In this document: positions 9,875 to 62,680 of the stretch, piece by piece
Layout: each line of letters starts with the position of its first letter
Numbering within the stretch: position 1 is the stretch's first letter
From: Apostichopus japonicus
Taxonomy: Eukaryota; Echinodermata; Holothuroidea; Aspidochirotida; Stichopodidae
Length of the DNA stretch: 64,000 nt
Reading direction: 5' to 3'
NCBI RefSeq assembly: GCF_037975245.1
Contig: NC_092580.1
Span: 32,389,001 to 32,453,000 of the forward strand
Notes under the pieces: generated by a model
What the model saw: only the letters and a program-made list of their open reading frames with translations
The model's database searches: none
Told to the model about the DNA's origin: nothing
Translations under genes and position numbers: made by a program

Positions 9875-11023
9875 ATGTTGACGTCGACAGACACGTGGAC
9901 TGTATCTGGTATATCTACGAACATGAATTCATTCGACGGAGAAGGAACTGATCAGGAATCAAAACTAGCGGAAATCTTATGGATTTTCGCTATGATACTA
10001 ATTATTGGATTCAGTGTGGTTGGAAATCTAACGATATGTTACGCAGTATTTAAAAACCAGAGCCTACGGAAGCCTTGTTTCTACATGTTGTGCAATATCG
10101 CTGTAGCAGACTGCCTACGCGCAGGGCTGTGCTTTCCTGTTGTCATTTTAGCAATATGGACGGGCAATTGGATTTACGGAAAATTTATGTGTGATATGTT
10201 AGCGTTTATCAATATTTATTTGTACTACGGAGTCTTATATACGACATTATTCCTAAGTGTGGAGCGGTATCTCGTGGTGAGATTCCACCGTTTCCATCGG
10301 CAGAAACTGACTGGATTGACATGCCTTCTCGGTGTTCTCTTCGCCTGGGCGTTGTCCATAGCAACGGCGTTTCCACCAATCCTAAACCCGAATGCCTATG
10401 AATATGCATCGGCAGAGTTTCAGTGTACATTCAAGAGGAGAGGTTTCTCCGATCACGGTTCGGAAAGTGGTTATTATTCAGTTTTCTACGTTGCGGACAA
10501 TTTCTTGATAGTAATCTTTTACGTTCGCGTTTTTTTGTTTATGAGGACTCATCGTAAAATGCGGCCTCTGCAGTTTATTCCAGCCATCTCCAGCTCGTGG
10601 ACATTTTACGGTCCCGGTTCGACCGGACAAGCGGCTACAAACTGGTTCCTTGGTTACCGTCAAAACGCAACGCCTCCGCCCCATACAGCCACAACACAGT
10701 CTTCAACTAATCGCACACATCTTGCCTTACTTCATCCTAATTTTAATAAAGAAGAGAGGTTATCTAAGATATGTTTACTTTTAGCTATAGTCAATATTTT
10801 ACTATGGATGCCCTACATGGTTAACTGTGCTGGTATCGCGTTTGGCATGTTAAAAATACCCAACGTGTATATCACAAACTTCACTTGGTTAACATACCTT
10901 CAGACATGTGCGTCTCCTTTAATATGCATCATATTCGTTCCAGAAATAAGAATGTTTTGCTGCGCATGTGCAAAGAAATATCCTGCGTCAGAACGAGAAG
11001 TTTTACAAATCTCTTCGCAATAG
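9875..11023 (+). CDS. SREB-family orphan GPCR (GPR27/GPR85/GPR173-like)
   Basis: A 382-residue rhodopsin-class seven-helix receptor encoded by one exon, as is usual for SREB genes. TM1 carries GNLTICYA (about residues 47-54). TM3 has the disulfide Cys in FMCDML and ends with ERYLVV in place of DRY. Extracellular loop 2 reads EFQCTFKRRGF, close to the SREB EDQCTF motif. The strongest evidence is the third intracellular loop: HRKMRPLQF, SSWTFYGPGSTGQAATNW and NATPPP line up with the signature block of vertebrate SREBs. TM6 has LLWMPYMV. TM7 has ASPLICIIF where most class A receptors have NPxxY; SREBs also lack the Tyr, but here Asn is Ser as well. SREBs are conserved brain-expressed orphan plasma-membrane receptors with no agreed ligand. 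The exon begins at an acceptor near 9821, so a non-coding 5' exon lies upstream, perhaps at 3.7-4.1 kb. Family call is firm; which of the three vertebrate members it is closest to cannot be judged here. Confidence 0.93.
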   Translation: MLTSTDTWTVSGISTNMNSFDGEGTDQESKLAEILWIFAMILIIGFSVVGNLTICYAVFKNQSLRKPCFYMLCNIAVADCLRAGLCFPVVILAIWTGNWIYGKFMCDMLAFINIYLYYGVLYTTLFLSVERYLVVRFHRFHRQKLTGLTCLLGVLFAWALSIATAFPPILNPNAYEYASAEFQCTFKRRGFSDHGSESGYYSVFYVADNFLIVIFYVRVFLFMRTHRKMRPLQFIPAISSSWTFYGPGSTGQAATNWFLGYRQNATPPPHTATTQSSTNRTHLALLHPNFNKEERLSKICLLLAIVNILLWMPYMVNCAGIAFGMLKIPNVYITNFTWLTYLQTCASPLICIIFVPEIRMFCCACAKKYPASEREVLQISSQ

Positions 11024-11675: not shown

Positions 11676-12490
11676 CACCATTGCCGGACCAGGGAGTTGT
11701 TATGGAACAACTCCCACACAGAAGACTACCTATCTTCCACGTGTGACTGTTCCTACCCTATATTGCTGTCTGTCACAATATGAGGCGGGCATTTACAGAG
11801 GGAGGTAAAAACACGACCTGCATAGAACAGCCGCAATATATTCTCAATGTGTAGGGAATTCGTTATACTCTCAGTGTAGAGTCATTATGCATAGAGCGTC
11901 AAATGTAATACGTCTTACGTGACTGTTGCCATAGTGACCCCTCGTGAAGTTGTAAACTTAATGATCAACGAAAACGTACGCGTAGTACTTTATGAAATGC
12001 GCGGGAAACGTTAATCATGATAGTTTCTCAAGTAGACTTCAGCCGTTTCTTAAATACTGTTGCTACCCATAAGGTATTTTTCACCCATGGACTAACGTAT
12101 TACGTGACTTGAAATAGGCCTGTGCATTTCAATTATTCCAGTATAGACAAACTTTAAGTTGACTGCAACTGAGTGAAAGTTTGTAAACACAATTCATATC
12201 TACATAATAACTTCCACCAAACAGTTACGCATTTAAGAGTTGATCACGTGCAGAGATCCAAAATGACCCGCAACTGGCCCGTTAGCCCCGCATTTGATGT
12301 CGAAAACCCGTCGACCCGCGCATACTATAGTCAAAATCCCGAATCCTGCTGAGTTGCTTTTGACTAACGTTTGTCACGTTTTTGTAATGTTTAGGTGCCA
12401 TAAAGAATCAGCCTATATATAGGTCCATTTAGCAGATCTGGTATAATAATACCCCAACATATGTAAAGGTGTTTTATGTTTTATGTATAT
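11024..12490. other. Downstream region and spacer
   Basis: Probable 3' untranslated sequence of the receptor followed by spacer. I see no clear AATAAA soon after the stop. Short open frames near 11136-11571 have no family resemblance. Confidence 0.4.
11600..11673. repeat. (AT)n microsatellite
   Basis: Uninterrupted TA run of about 70 bp; the open frame of alternating Tyr-Ile across it is an artefact. Confidence 0.95.
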
Positions 12491-12701
12491 CCTTCACCTC
12501 GGCCTTTTGGCTAAGATCATTATGTAGCACTTTGTTCCCCTTTTAGGGGAATCGTAAACCACACCTGACGATGATCACACAGTCACAGTCTCGATGCAAT
12601 TAAGGGGCCTGCATGGGGTTGAGAGCGGATCAATAGTTGGGATGTTTGGGTTTTCGCCGGTGCCCATGGGGTTCTTTCCTGGGTAACTTTTCTTAAAAAA
12701 A
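12491..12701 (+). mobile_element. U2-snRNA-headed SINE-like element, copy 1
   Basis: The 5' part (12498-12519) reads CTCGGCCTTTTGGCTAAGAT followed by CA, matching the 5' end of U2 snRNA without a mismatch. A body follows with GATGATCACACAGTCACAGT and GGTTGAGAGCGGATCA, then a tail with GGTTCTTTCCTGGGTAAC ending in an A-rich stretch. Body and tail recur at 51961-52094, 60901-60986 and 61525-61617. Too diverged after the head to be a functional U2 gene. It is best read as a short retroposon with a snRNA-derived head. Confidence 0.75.
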
Positions 12702-14999: not shown

Positions 15000-16560
15000 A
15001 GCTTTAAAAATTCTAATAACTCGTCGAAAACATGAAGTTCCTATAACTTTATGTAAACAACTAATCTCCCTTAAATATCATTCAATACCATTTTGATCCG
15101 TGACAATTTGTCAAGATTTTGGAATGATGTTATCAATAAAACCTTTTTATTTTCCTACTGAATTTTTTAAATGCATCTGAGGAACTGACATAATGGTCTA
15201 TGAGTCACGACTCAGCAGTCAACTGAGTCACTTAAATTGATAAGCCTCGTGTGTAAAATGTCATTTCTCAAAATATTTAAAGTGGGATAGAAATACAACC
15301 TCAAGTAACAGATAACATCAAATGGAACTTTTGTACCTAAAATCACCCAACATAGAGCCTGGGCACGAAAACCAAACAATCTTCTCTCAAACCTAGTTTC
15401 CTTCCATCGAGACCGTAACACATATGATCATGCCGTTGTTACGTCAAGTGAGTATCAAAAGTCTCTGGTGTCCACCCCCTCCCCTCCCTCACACCATCCT
15501 TTTTTTACCTCTTCTGCTTCTTCTTGTTTCGGCTATCGTGATGTCTATATTAAAAAGTTATTCCCGCATCTGGCAAGCCAAACACAATATAAAACCATAC
15601 CAATTCATGTCTATTAGTAGCAAATTGGCGCTTGAAGGTCACCTGTAATTTAACCAGGAATAATTCATTTTACTATAGGTTGCGGTTTCCATAGTAACGT
15701 ATGCTTTTCCAGTTTACGGTTGAATTAAGTATTTTATCAGTTCTTTAATTACATGAACTTTGCTTAAAAACAGATTAATTAACCTTGGACAATCTCTGTT
15801 GGTTTTTACTCCAGACAAACTGTTAGTAAGTCTCAATACGTGTTTGCTGATGAATTTCGGAAAACAAACTTCCGAAGCAGATTCAATGTTTCTTGTTCTA
15901 AATGCACTCTGACCAGGTGGGTTTAATAGAGAAAAGCTGTCGCAATCGAAAGAAAGAAATTTATTTTCTGTTGCTCTTATGGCGCGAACGATTTACCGTC
16001 AAGTCACTGCGACCGTCCATATCATCATGTTCATTACACAAATGTAACCTATATATACTCGTATTGTTCACTTTTTTTTACCCAATTCCACGGAGGAAAC
16101 GTCTGAAAACACTTGTTTATTCAATGCAATGGAAGCAAATGACACAATTTCGCAAGCTACATCGGTAAGACTGAAAGAAAGATTATATTCAAGAGAAAGG
16201 ACCTAACACAGACTAGTCACGAAATGAAAGAAGTCATAGACCTAACGGTCGTAAACAAAACAGAGAGATTTGATTTGGCGCATGATCTGTTGGGCGGGGC
16301 TTGCAAATTTTGATTGAAGTTTGTAGAATCTACGGACTCGTTAAAAATCTGGTAAATTTCATTCAGCTCAAAATGTTTAGCGACAGATAACTCAATAAAA
16401 TGAATGATTATTAATATGAAAATTGCAAATAACGGTGTTGTTTTCACTGAGCTTTTAGGAAAATAAGCTGGAAAGGTCGAATTTAAAAGTTGGCAAATAC
16501 ACATTGAGACTTTAAGGCATTTTAGAAAATCTTGCGTGAACCAAGAAGATTCCGCAGCGA
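15000..16560. other. Intergenic spacer
   Basis: No supported gene. A short ATG frame at 16130-16165 runs into a GTAAGA donor-like word, but with no partner exon I do not call it. A 133-codon minus-strand frame at 16217-16618 overlaps the dispersed repeat and resembles nothing I know. Confidence 0.4.
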
Positions 16561-51229: not shown

Positions 51230-51960
51230 AAAGGGATATACTGAAACATGATCAAGTGAAAGTTTACAATTATAAATATAAGTATGGTTTATATTGGATA
51301 ATAATTAACAATGAGGCCTGAGACGAGAAGGTGACTTTATCATCAAATTTTGTATTTTTAAAGGATCATTCCGGAAAGTTAACATTATGTAAATCAGAGA
51401 CGGGGTTGCTATAGAGACGAATACGACCTGCACTATGAGATTTCCAGTTTTGTTGAACTGACAAATTAGAAAGCTAAACTCTCCCATATAAAACTGACTG
51501 CTGCGGATATGCGACACCATTCATGCCACATTGTGTGATGCTGTACGTGTATAAAGCATGTATATGGATTAACATAAGCAGTACACACACACAGTAGAAG
51601 AAATGACTTTTTGCTTATGACGTCATACGACCAGTGACATGATACTATCATTAGCAAAAGGCTGATGCAAATCGGACAACCAAAATGTAACGCTGTGTTG
51701 AGAAGTTCGATTGAGCATTATCTAAATTGAAGATATCATTTTGGAAGACAATGTGTAAATTAAATGTCTCGAATATAATACAAAAATAGCCCCCCCCCCC
51801 CTGCCCGCCAAAGTAGACCCATTCATACAGGTATACACTGCTATCGCTGATTATGACATGATAATACACTGCAAAATAGATATAGGTCTATACGCCGGTT
51901 TGAATATTCATTATTTTACATACGACTAGAGCGCATGCGCTTACACTTCCAAGGAATTCC

Positions 51961-52094
51961 ATGTGTAGTATCTGTTCCCGACGATGATCACACAGTCACA
52001 GTCCCGATGCAAGGGGACTGGGGTTGAGAGCGGATCAGTCGTTTGGTAGTTTGGTTTTCGTGCCCAGGTTCTTTCCTGGGCGACTTTTTCTTAG
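51961..52094 (+). mobile_element. U2-snRNA-headed SINE-like element, copy 2 (5' truncated)
   Basis: Starts within the U2-like head at ATGTGTAGTATCTGTTCC, which matches the branch-site recognition region of U2 (GTGTAGTATCTGTTC). Body GATGATCACACAGTCACAGT and GGTTGAGAGCGGATCAGTCG and tail GGTTCTTTCCTGGGCGAC match copy 1. Together copies 1 and 2 extend the U2 match to about the first 40 nucleotides of the snRNA. Confidence 0.75.
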
Positions 52095-52292
52095 AAAGTA
52101 GACTAGAGAGACAAAAATATCTACTTGTCATGCTTGAAAAGAAATCGCTGACTGGCACCGTCTAGCAATTTGACGGAAAACTTTCCACCATTGAATAAAA
52201 CATAAACATTAATAGGATGTTATTTTTCGGAATAAAGTTGATTGGAAAGTACCCTAAGTCAAACCTCCTGTAAATGAAAAAGAAAAACAAAA

Positions 52293-60668: not shown

Positions 60669-60900
60669 AAAGGAGACAACAGCATAAAACGGCAAACAAC
60701 ATAAAAGTAAACAACATAATACATGGCCCTTTCGGCGTTCCATAGTCAACATTGTTCTTTGAGCAGCGACTGTTTGAACATGTACTATAAGCAGTATACT
60801 ATAAACTGAAAAGAACCAATCATGAACAGTATATTGTTTTTTAATAGGCAAATCATATCTTATACCGGATAATATGTTATTTGTGAATGTATGTTATTTC

Positions 60901-60986
60901 GTTGTTTGGTGCCCAGGTTCTTTCCTGGGTGACTAAATCGCTCTCGGCCTTTTGCCTAACATCATGCATGTGTAGAATCTGTGTCT
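60901..60986 (+). mobile_element. U2-snRNA-headed SINE-like element, copy 3 (tail then head)
   Basis: A tail piece (TGCCCAGGTTCTTTCCTGGG, 60909-60930) is followed directly by a head ATCGCTCTCGGCCTTTTGCC (60937) with ATGTGTAGAATCTGTG after it, matching U2 nucleotides 1 to about 40 with few changes. Tail-before-head order suggests a dimer or an insertion of one copy at the end of another. Confidence 0.65.
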
Positions 60987-61524
60987 ACGGGAATCTGCCC
61001 AATTTGCATAAAACGTATAACGTATACCCTCGCCTCTGTTTTGTACTTCATGATATCACGTGACAATAAATGCTGCGTATACCCCGCTTCAGGAATGCGG
61101 CGAACGTGATATGACGTAAAGTTATAGAAAAGAACCAATCACGAAAAAGCAATCGTTTTTTAATGAGTTAAACATAAGTTATGCCGGATAATTTGTGATT
61201 TGTGATGGTATTTTCATTTCATTTATTTTTTCCATTTCCTCACAATGTTTATATAATAAAAAGACGGTGAAGACAATACCATGCAAAGAAAATAATAAGT
61301 AATAAATCATATAAAAGAAAAATAATGGAAATTACGGAGTGTATGTTATTTTAGAATTCGAACACTTATTGTGAATGTAGTTAAAAACCTTCCCAAATAG
61401 TCGAATTGACTATCTGGATGAAGGTTTACTTATATTAAGCTATTTTTTTGTGAAAGTACTGGGAGACTTTGAATATCATGAGTACAGTATAGCATTATTT
61501 TCTATTTCTGGGGGAATCGTTCGC

Positions 61525-61617
61525 TCTTTGGTTTTTCGTGGCCAGGTGCTTATCTGGGTGACTTTTTTTAAAGAGTATCGCGATACACACATGGCGATGA
61601 TCACACAGTCACAATCT
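61525..61617 (+). mobile_element. U2-SINE-like fragments, copy 4
   Basis: Tail-like TCGTGGCCAGGTGCTTATCT followed by body words GATGATCACACAGTCACAAT. Again tail precedes body, as in copy 3. No recognisable U2 head here. Confidence 0.5.
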
Positions 61618-62680
61618 CGTTTTGTTGTTTTGTTGCATTTGGCCAATATAATAGCTTACCAACATATACTACACATGACCAGAAGGTTTCAAAACTTAAC
61701 TTAAGGACACTCTTTTCAGCACCTTGTGAGAGTTTTAGAATCAGTAATTATTTGCAAGGTATCAGCATATGATTGTGATAATGTTTCAAATTCATAGGTT
61801 TGCATAGTGACAGCATGATAAGGAAGTACTCACGGAACTTTGGTTCATCAAAGTAACATTTTCCCTCATATTTCATGCAGTCCCTTAAGTTTAACTTAAA
61901 GCAAACTCCCTATAGAAACCATCTTGACAGTAGCCGAAATTTAAACTATTATATATACCAGTTAGATATATTGCAACATTATAGCTTTACCAATTTCAGG
62001 GTGGTAACTTGCTAAAATGGTTCAAGTGATTCCATGTCATTGAGAATTGTTGAATTAGGAAACAGATGTCTCAATTTGGGGAAATGAACTTGAGAGTGGT
62101 TGTAGTTCATAGTGACAAATAGCTGACTTTGTAGCATATTAGATGACAATACTGATGACATATAGGCTATAAGGCCAGTTTTAGAGGTGTTCAATATGAA
62201 GAGAAAATTTGGCAACGGTGGTCTCCCCCCTCTCTCACCCCCTCTCTCTCTGCCCTGAAAACAATTGTGTGCATATGCTCATGGATTCGTCTTAATAAAC
62301 GCCTCAGTTTAAAACCTGTTTTCATATGGAAGAAGGGTCCTCTAAATGTCTAACAGATGAATGGATGAATGTACCTTGACTCATCATAGGGTCAATGTCC
62401 TCGTTTTATCAATTCGATACATCCAAAGATAATTAATTCGACCATACCTTAGTAACTACTGAATTGGGCCTACTACATTGTCCTCTGAAATAAATATAGG
62501 CGTGCCGCTATTTTGTCTGCAAGTGGTGTGCGCCTCTACGTGCATTGTAGATTTACTTTTCCTTTAATTATTATAAAGTTAGGTCAAGAGCGCATTGGTA
62601 GTAATAGAAGGGGATGAAGCCGCACTAATTCGTGAGAGAACAAATACAAGAAAAAACAAAAATCAAGAAACGACATAATT
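61618..62680. other. Spacer, nothing recognised
   Basis: Short open frames only; no repeat or RNA recognised. Confidence 0.45.

What the first reader, a model, noticed from the sequence alone, without database searches (positions are those of the whole stretch)
12491..12701. A SINE-like family with a U2 snRNA head
The first 22 bases of the head match the 5' end of U2 snRNA exactly, and a non-U2 body and tail are shared with three other loci in this window (51961, 60901, 61525). The 52-kb copy carries the U2 branch-site region and the 61-kb copy carries the first 40 bases. snRNA-headed SINEs have been described in a few animals (for example crocodilians), but I know of none from this kind of genome.
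Basis: partly seen in the sequence, partly recalled or inferred. Interest (0 to 1): 0.78.

Follow-up and report, generated by a model that had tools for sequence, protein, structure and literature searches.

The report
SINE that borrows U2 gene heads
A short parasitic DNA family wears the start of the U2 splicing-RNA gene as its own front end, probably because copies land inside U2 genes, where the gene's own promoter could transcribe them; this suggests how a SINE can live without a promoter and where its RNA-gene head comes from.

Summary
The window copies are old members of a ~193-bp SINE family with 1,258 exact body 20-mers genome-wide and none for the reversed pattern. Young copies start at U2 +1, and the head equals the species' own U2 nt 1-45. 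Target duplications of 8 nt or more flank 32 of 69 scored copies, against 7 of 2,707 shuffled flank pairs.

The U2 genes explain the head. In the U2 tandem array on C16, four of the U2 genes read carry the SINE body at about nt 37/38: promoter, U2 1-45 (or 1-53), body, tail, U2 38 onward. Of seven tail+U2 junctions genome-wide, six are on C16, in or near the array. One resident copy is 189/189 identical to a copy on C2. Keno-like LINEs in the array share this 3' junction.

I propose that U2-resident copies, transcribed from the U2 promoter, are the source genes, and that U2 insertion remakes the head. Transcription, direction of copying and partner LINE are inferred. The SINE tail matches none of the three LINE 3' ends seen.

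The parts
12489..12701 (+). old near-full-length copy: U2-derived head (own U2 nt 8-30 exact at 12498-12520), body, tail; no clear target duplication
   Evidence: (73% to consensus)
12570..12589 (+). diagnostic body 20-mer GATGATCACACAGTCACAGT
51960..52100 (+). younger truncated copy: U2 nt 28-44 joined to body from about CCGACG, tail to AGAAAGTA (99% over 124 nt); an 8-bp repeat GACTAGAG at 51924 and 52101 is separated from the head by 28 nt of other DNA, so it may be chance; the short head-body join may be a second head type or a deletion between CCC runs
60889..60934 (+). tail fragment of one copy (83%)
60937..60982 (+). U2 head (consensus 1-43, 83%) of a second copy, directly after the tail fragment
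61517..61621 (+). tail fragment followed by a body fragment (nested or rearranged copies)

Best explanation
It is a promoterless SINE that lives in U2 snRNA genes. SHOWN: the body is inserted in U2 genes at about nt 37/38 (GTAGT|ATCTG; the letters AGT are shared, so the join could lie at 34/35 to 37/38), the same 3' junction as Keno-like LINEs in the same array. The result is U2 promoter - U2 1-37 + duplicated target (to nt 45 or 53) - body - tail - U2 38 onward. The dispersed SINE is the stretch from U2 +1 to the tail end, often with its own target duplication elsewhere. INFERRED: U2-resident copies are transcribed from the U2 promoter. The read-through RNA, with U2 38 onward after the tail, is used by a U2-cutting LINE of the Keno type for target-primed reverse transcription, usually at AT(C/T) sites. 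Dispersed copies lack the promoter and are dead ends. Return to a U2 gene, by 5'-truncated insertion with a new duplication or by annealing of the cDNA's U2 head to the gene, remakes the head.
For: Own U2 nt 1-45 is identical to the consensus head, in the C16 gene and the four C15 genes read. In L094, 3 of 6 U2 units carry the body and 3 are intact; L101 adds a fourth, with one mismatch in its head. In the first unit U2 runs unbroken to nt 53, then body from CTGACG, then U2 38 onward: insertion of a 5'-truncated body with a 15-16-bp duplication that makes a new head. Tail+U2 junction: 7 genome-wide, 6 on C16 in or near the array, reversed control 0. Resident copy 2 equals dispersed L009 at 189/189, including the TTCCCCTC variant. 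Of 27 near-full-length copies with a duplication of 8 or more, 21 start within U2 nt 1-8, 4 have one or two extra bases before +1; exceptions are L006 (simple repeat) and L038 (nt 17) (these were chosen to start near the head, so this shows mainly that none begins upstream in the promoter). Neither U2 promoter matches any of the 89 sources, nor does U2 54-193 or the array spacer. After the tail, where the next base is A, T follows in 49/69 (background 31%) and TC in 16/69 (5%). T4 in the head and T5 before the 3' end speak against Pol III (sequence; established knowledge).
Against: No RNA data: transcription of U2-resident copies is not shown. Identity between a resident and a dispersed copy does not give direction, and L009 lies in an unusual tandem of nine copies. 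The SINE tail matches none of LINE-A, B or C (last 20 nt: 28%, 52% and 34% of shuffles score as well; BLAST), though B and C also end in AAAGT. The LINE-B/C 3' end was found only at C16:30.885-31.163 Mb (17 of 17, exact pattern), so those LINEs do not themselves show the loose targeting that over a thousand SINE copies need. In three of four resident copies the head is of the same type as in dispersed copies, so these could be landing sites rather than sources. 37 of 69 scored copies have no duplication of 8 or more, and 38 of 107 tail-bearing hits begin after nt 15. The head is not better conserved than the body among copies (4.3% against 4.2-5.7% substitutions). The predicted RNA fold (z -3.8 on a hand-made consensus) has little covariation: 2 of 46 pairs.
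Confidence: 0.72

Rival explanations
1. Ordinary snRNA-headed SINE: a U2 5' fragment was joined once to the body by template switching. Source loci are unknown dispersed copies, and the SINE copies in U2 genes are only landing sites reached because the helper LINE cuts U2.
For: Recurrent addition of U1/U2 pieces is described for crocodilian SINEU (recalled; paper not held). Heads of resident copies 2-4 are of the same type as dispersed heads.
Against: One resident copy shows a new head made by target duplication (U2 1-53). The dispersed copies read have no U2 promoter sequence, and no near-full-length insert starts upstream in it. The head ends where U2 duplications of about 8 to 16 nt would end it.
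Confidence: 0.2
2. Pol III SINE: the U2 head acts as an internal promoter (TGGCTAAGATCA resembles an A box, recalled consensus).
For: Partial A-box resemblance by eye; no scan was run.
Against: TTTT at nt 14-17 and TTTTT before the 3' end should stop Pol III upstream of sequence that inserted copies keep. No convincing B box by eye. ARAGORN finds no tRNA in 4 of 4 loci given.
Confidence: 0.06
3. U2 retropseudogene debris or a piece of a DNA transposon.
For: None beyond the U2 match.
Against: Constant non-U2 body and tail, fixed ends that are not inverted repeats (read from the sequence), duplications of varied sequence and 8-19 nt, U2 54-193 absent from the 89 sources.
Confidence: 0.02

Closest known systems
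SINEU (crocodilian snRNA-headed SINEs, Kojima 2015; content recalled; seen only as citations or mentions in passages; paper not held)
   Same: U1/U2-derived head, LINE-dependent dispersal; recurrent addition of snRNA heads (recalled)
   Different: Here SINE-bearing U2 genes are seen in the tandem array, giving a mechanism for head gain. Relation of body and tail to SINEU could not be tested.
Keno (APE-type U2-specific LINE) and Utopia (RLE-type) (PMC4640811: passages and section 6 read)
   Same: 3' junction at the same U2 site to within a base and shared letters (the paper gives nt 39 for Utopia and says Keno is identical; I read 38); tandem U2 array occupied
   Different: This element is ~193 bp, non-coding, and mostly outside U2
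R2 SIDEs, short non-autonomous elements in 28S genes (recalled only; the one search failed)
   Same: Short non-autonomous parasite co-transcribed with the RNA gene it sits in
   Different: SIDEs are internally deleted R2 copies and stay in rDNA; this body has no match in LINE-A, LINE-B or the LINE-C pieces read, and it spreads genome-wide

Membership tests
SINE | short (<600 bp), non-coding, many copies, fixed ends | tested here: met
   ~193 bp; 1,258 exact body 20-mers; 53 of 116 hits reach from nt 8 to nt 190
SINE | target-site duplications of target-primed retrotransposition | tested here: met
   32/69 at >=8 nt vs 7/2707 shuffled pairs
SINE | internal Pol III promoter | tested here: inconclusive
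   no tRNA found in 4 of 4 loci given; T4 and T5 runs inside; no box scan or RNA data
SINE | 3' end shared with a partner LINE | tested here: inconclusive
   not shared with the 3 array LINEs read; other LINEs of the genome not examined
SINEU (snRNA-headed SINE) | head derived from U1 or U2 | tested here: met
   45/45 with own U2; RF00004 53.3 bits in L082
SINEU (snRNA-headed SINE) | body/tail homologous to crocodilian SINEU | not testable with these tools
   sequences and paper not held
U2-targeted retroelement (Keno/Utopia site) | 3' junction at U2 nt ~38 | tested here: met
   4 resident copies read; 6 of 7 tail+U2 junctions on C16 in or near the array
U2-targeted retroelement (Keno/Utopia site) | insertions confined to U2 | tested here: not met
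   none of the 89 sources (88 loci and the window) holds U2 54-193, array spacer or U2 promoter; 7 exact tail+U2 junctions against 1,258 exact body matches
Keno (for LINE-B) | APE endonuclease + RT LINE in U2 | tested here: met
   Pfam PF03372, PF00078, PF13966; U2 junctions; no tree made, clade not tested

The most novel reading that the evidence does not exclude
A promoterless SINE whose whole dispersed family is fed by copies sitting inside U2 snRNA genes: the target gene supplies promoter, transcription start and head, and every new U2 insertion mints a new head. snRNA heads of SINEs in general may be fossils of target-gene insertions by U2/U1-specific LINEs.
Probability: 0.55. Interest if true: 0.85.

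Novelty: new variant of a known kind. Interest (0 to 1): 0.77.

Why it matters
Where SINE heads come from, and how a SINE without a Pol III promoter is transcribed, are open questions. Here likely intermediates are visible in one assembly: U2 genes carrying the body, one with a freshly made head, and a dispersed copy identical to a resident one. It ties snRNA-headed SINEs to U2-cutting LINEs and makes the source-gene model directly testable with capped-RNA data.

Tried and rejected
Tail-only copies with non-SINE sequence upstream: 0 matches for one constrained pattern; not decisive, because a LINE family passes the four excluded bases only about one time in three. Rfam on the window at gathering: 0. 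Viral contigs for the body 20-mer: 0. tRNA origin of the body: none in 4 of 4 loci. A conserved RNA fold: stable, but hardly any covariation, so no functional claim is made. A LINE 3' tail in the U2-array LINEs: none. The organism could not be named: no eukaryote collection was on hand, and I did not search for mitochondrial genes.

Not answered, so open: count of head subfamilies, dispersal of the U2 1-53 head type, LINE-A dispersal, and a count of all U2 promoter+head sites.

Full report
WHAT IS IN THE WINDOW. The window lies at C20:32389001-32453000 of an unnamed 671.6-Mb genome in 35 contigs. At 12489-12701 there is an old copy (73% to the family consensus) of a short element. 12498-12520 is identical to the own U2 nt 8-30. 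The body 20-mer is found at 12570, 51983 and 61596, the last with one mismatch. 51960-52100 carries U2 nt 28-44 joined to body and tail. 60889-60982 is a tail fragment followed directly by a U2 head. 61517-61621 is a tail fragment followed by body. A 70% relic lies at 15327-15431 on the minus strand.

THE FAMILY. The exact body 20-mer occurs 657 + 601 times in the genome; the reversed pattern occurs 0 times. I read 88 loci from the first 100 listed places, all on C1-C3: 8 cut out and 80. They were chosen by an exact 20-mer and are not a random sample. Together with the window they gave 116 hits to the working consensus, 69 of them spanning consensus nt 15 to 185; 53 reach from nt 8 to nt 190. 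The element is ~193 bp: a head equal to U2 nt 1-45, a body, and a tail ending CCCAGGTTCTTTCCTGGGCGACTTTTTCTTAAAAAGT. The closest pair on different chromosomes, L082 (C3) and L058 (C2), is 99.5% identical, so activity is recent. Rfam calls the head U2 at 53.3 bits (cut-off 46) in L082.

RETROTRANSPOSITION. With L009 set aside and only copies whose tail end could be placed, 69 of 116 hits were scored. 32 of 69 have a duplication of 8 or more next to the 5' end, against 7 of 2,707 shuffled pairings. A looser first count gave 53 of 107 against 55 of 2,109; it includes the L009 tandem, which inflates it. Duplications run from 8 to 19 nt. In 27 near-full-length copies with a duplication of 8 or more, the insert begins within U2 nt 1-8 in 21, one or two bases before +1 in 4, at -5 in L006 (a simple repeat) and at nt 17 in L038. 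These copies were selected to start near the head; 38 of 107 tail-bearing hits start after nt 15. What counts is that no insert starts upstream in the U2 promoter. After the tail, given that the next base is A, T follows in 49 of 69 (background 31%) and TC in 16 of 69 (background 5%); the U2 site reads GTAGT|ATCTG.

U2 GENES. RF00004 finds 46 full-length U2 genes, a lower bound: 42 in a tandem array (645-bp unit) on C16 at 31.015-31.156 Mb and 4 on C15. The C16 gene and the four C15 genes printed share nt 1-45, identical to the SINE head. Gaps in the array hold inserts. LINE-A (L089, 5,042 bp) has U2 1-30 on the left and U2 38 onward on the right. LINE-B (5,301 bp, stop-to-stop frames of 510 and 1,162 codons) has a 13-bp duplication, U2 38-50; its second frame matches Exo_endo_phos, RVT_1 and zf-RVT. 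LINE-C (3' ends in L095, L103, L114) shares only about the last 20 nt with B. A and B ORF2 are 36% identical over 1,139 aligned positions. All three have their 3' junction at nt 37/38, or within the letters shared with U2. PMC4640811 puts the Utopia junction at nt 39 and says that of Keno is identical (passages, section 6). By endonuclease type A and B resemble Keno; no tree was made, and 'Tx1 clade' for Keno is recalled.

THE KEY RESULT. From the spacing of U2 hits I predicted a U2 unit lengthened by about 150 bp (note, written with the fetch). In L094, 3 of 6 U2 units carry the SINE body; L101 adds a fourth. In the first, U2 is unbroken to nt 53, the body starts at CTGACG, and U2 resumes at nt 38 after AAAAAGT: a 15-16-bp duplication around a 5'-truncated body, which makes a U2-headed SINE in place. 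In the second and third U2 is exact to nt 45 and joins CCCTCGGG or CCTTAGGG; the fourth is like the third, with one mismatch in the head. The second resident copy equals the dispersed copy L009:5646-5834 on C2 at 189 of 189. Genome-wide, the exact junction tail+U2 38-53 occurs 7 times: 6 on C16, of which 5 lie within the span of listed U2 genes and one 8.4 kb outside it, and one at C20:14906446 (three of the seven, including the last, were not read). The LINE-B/C 3' end occurs 17 times, all on the U2 strand at C16:30.885-31.163 Mb; 10 lie within the span of listed U2 genes and 7 outside it, by up to 130 kb, and of all 17 I read the flanks of 5.

MECHANISM. The shown facts fit one cycle. The body inserts at the LINE site in a U2 gene; the U2 promoter then drives U2 1-45 - body - tail - U2 38 onward. 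A U2-cutting LINE reverse-transcribes the RNA from the tail end, where U2 38 onward can pair with the nicked target. Most insertions fall elsewhere, often at AT(C/T), and are dead because they carry no promoter: neither U2 promoter finds a match in the 89 sources. Copies that return to U2 regain promoter and head. Transcription, the helper and the direction are inferred. Against it: the tail differs from all three LINE ends, LINE-B/C are not found elsewhere, and resident copies could be sinks.

WHAT IT IS NOT. Pol III transcription is unlikely: TTTT in the head and TTTTT before the retained 3' end. No DNA-transposon features were seen. The RNA fold is stable (z -3.8), but covariation is slight in 42 of the 53 full-length copies (11 were left out of the alignment).

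PRIOR ART. The listings of the searches show no open-access paper about a SINE resident in U2 genes; of the listed papers I saw passages of four. The closest, Kojima 2015 on SINEU, is not held and may discuss head gain, so novelty of the mechanism is provisional.

Noticed in passing
L089; L109+L113+L110; L095/L103/L114 (C16 U2 array): Three distinct Keno-like LINE lineages occupy the same U2 array at the same 3' junction; A loses 7 bp of U2, B duplicates 13 bp; the one LINE-B copy read through has two long open frames.
   Followed up: partly
L009:5646-6938 (C2:21.947 Mb): Head-to-tail run of nine SINE hits, one full and eight 5'-truncated, separated by TATCCTATACGG-like repeats, as if insertion recurred at one site or the unit was duplicated.
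   Followed up: partly
G000:C20:14906446: A SINE tail followed by U2 nt 38-53 outside the C16 array; possible retrocopy of read-through RNA.
   Followed up: no
L044:1456-1490 (minus): A tail fragment joined to a second SINE exactly at GTAGT|ATCTGTTC of its U2 head.
   Followed up: partly
L097, L099 (C16:31041657, 31046970): A different reverse-transcriptase-like frame (YADD motif by eye) inside gaps of the U2 array.
   Followed up: no
window 9875-11023 +: 382-aa frame that looks like a rhodopsin-type GPCR (by eye, not searched).
   Followed up: no
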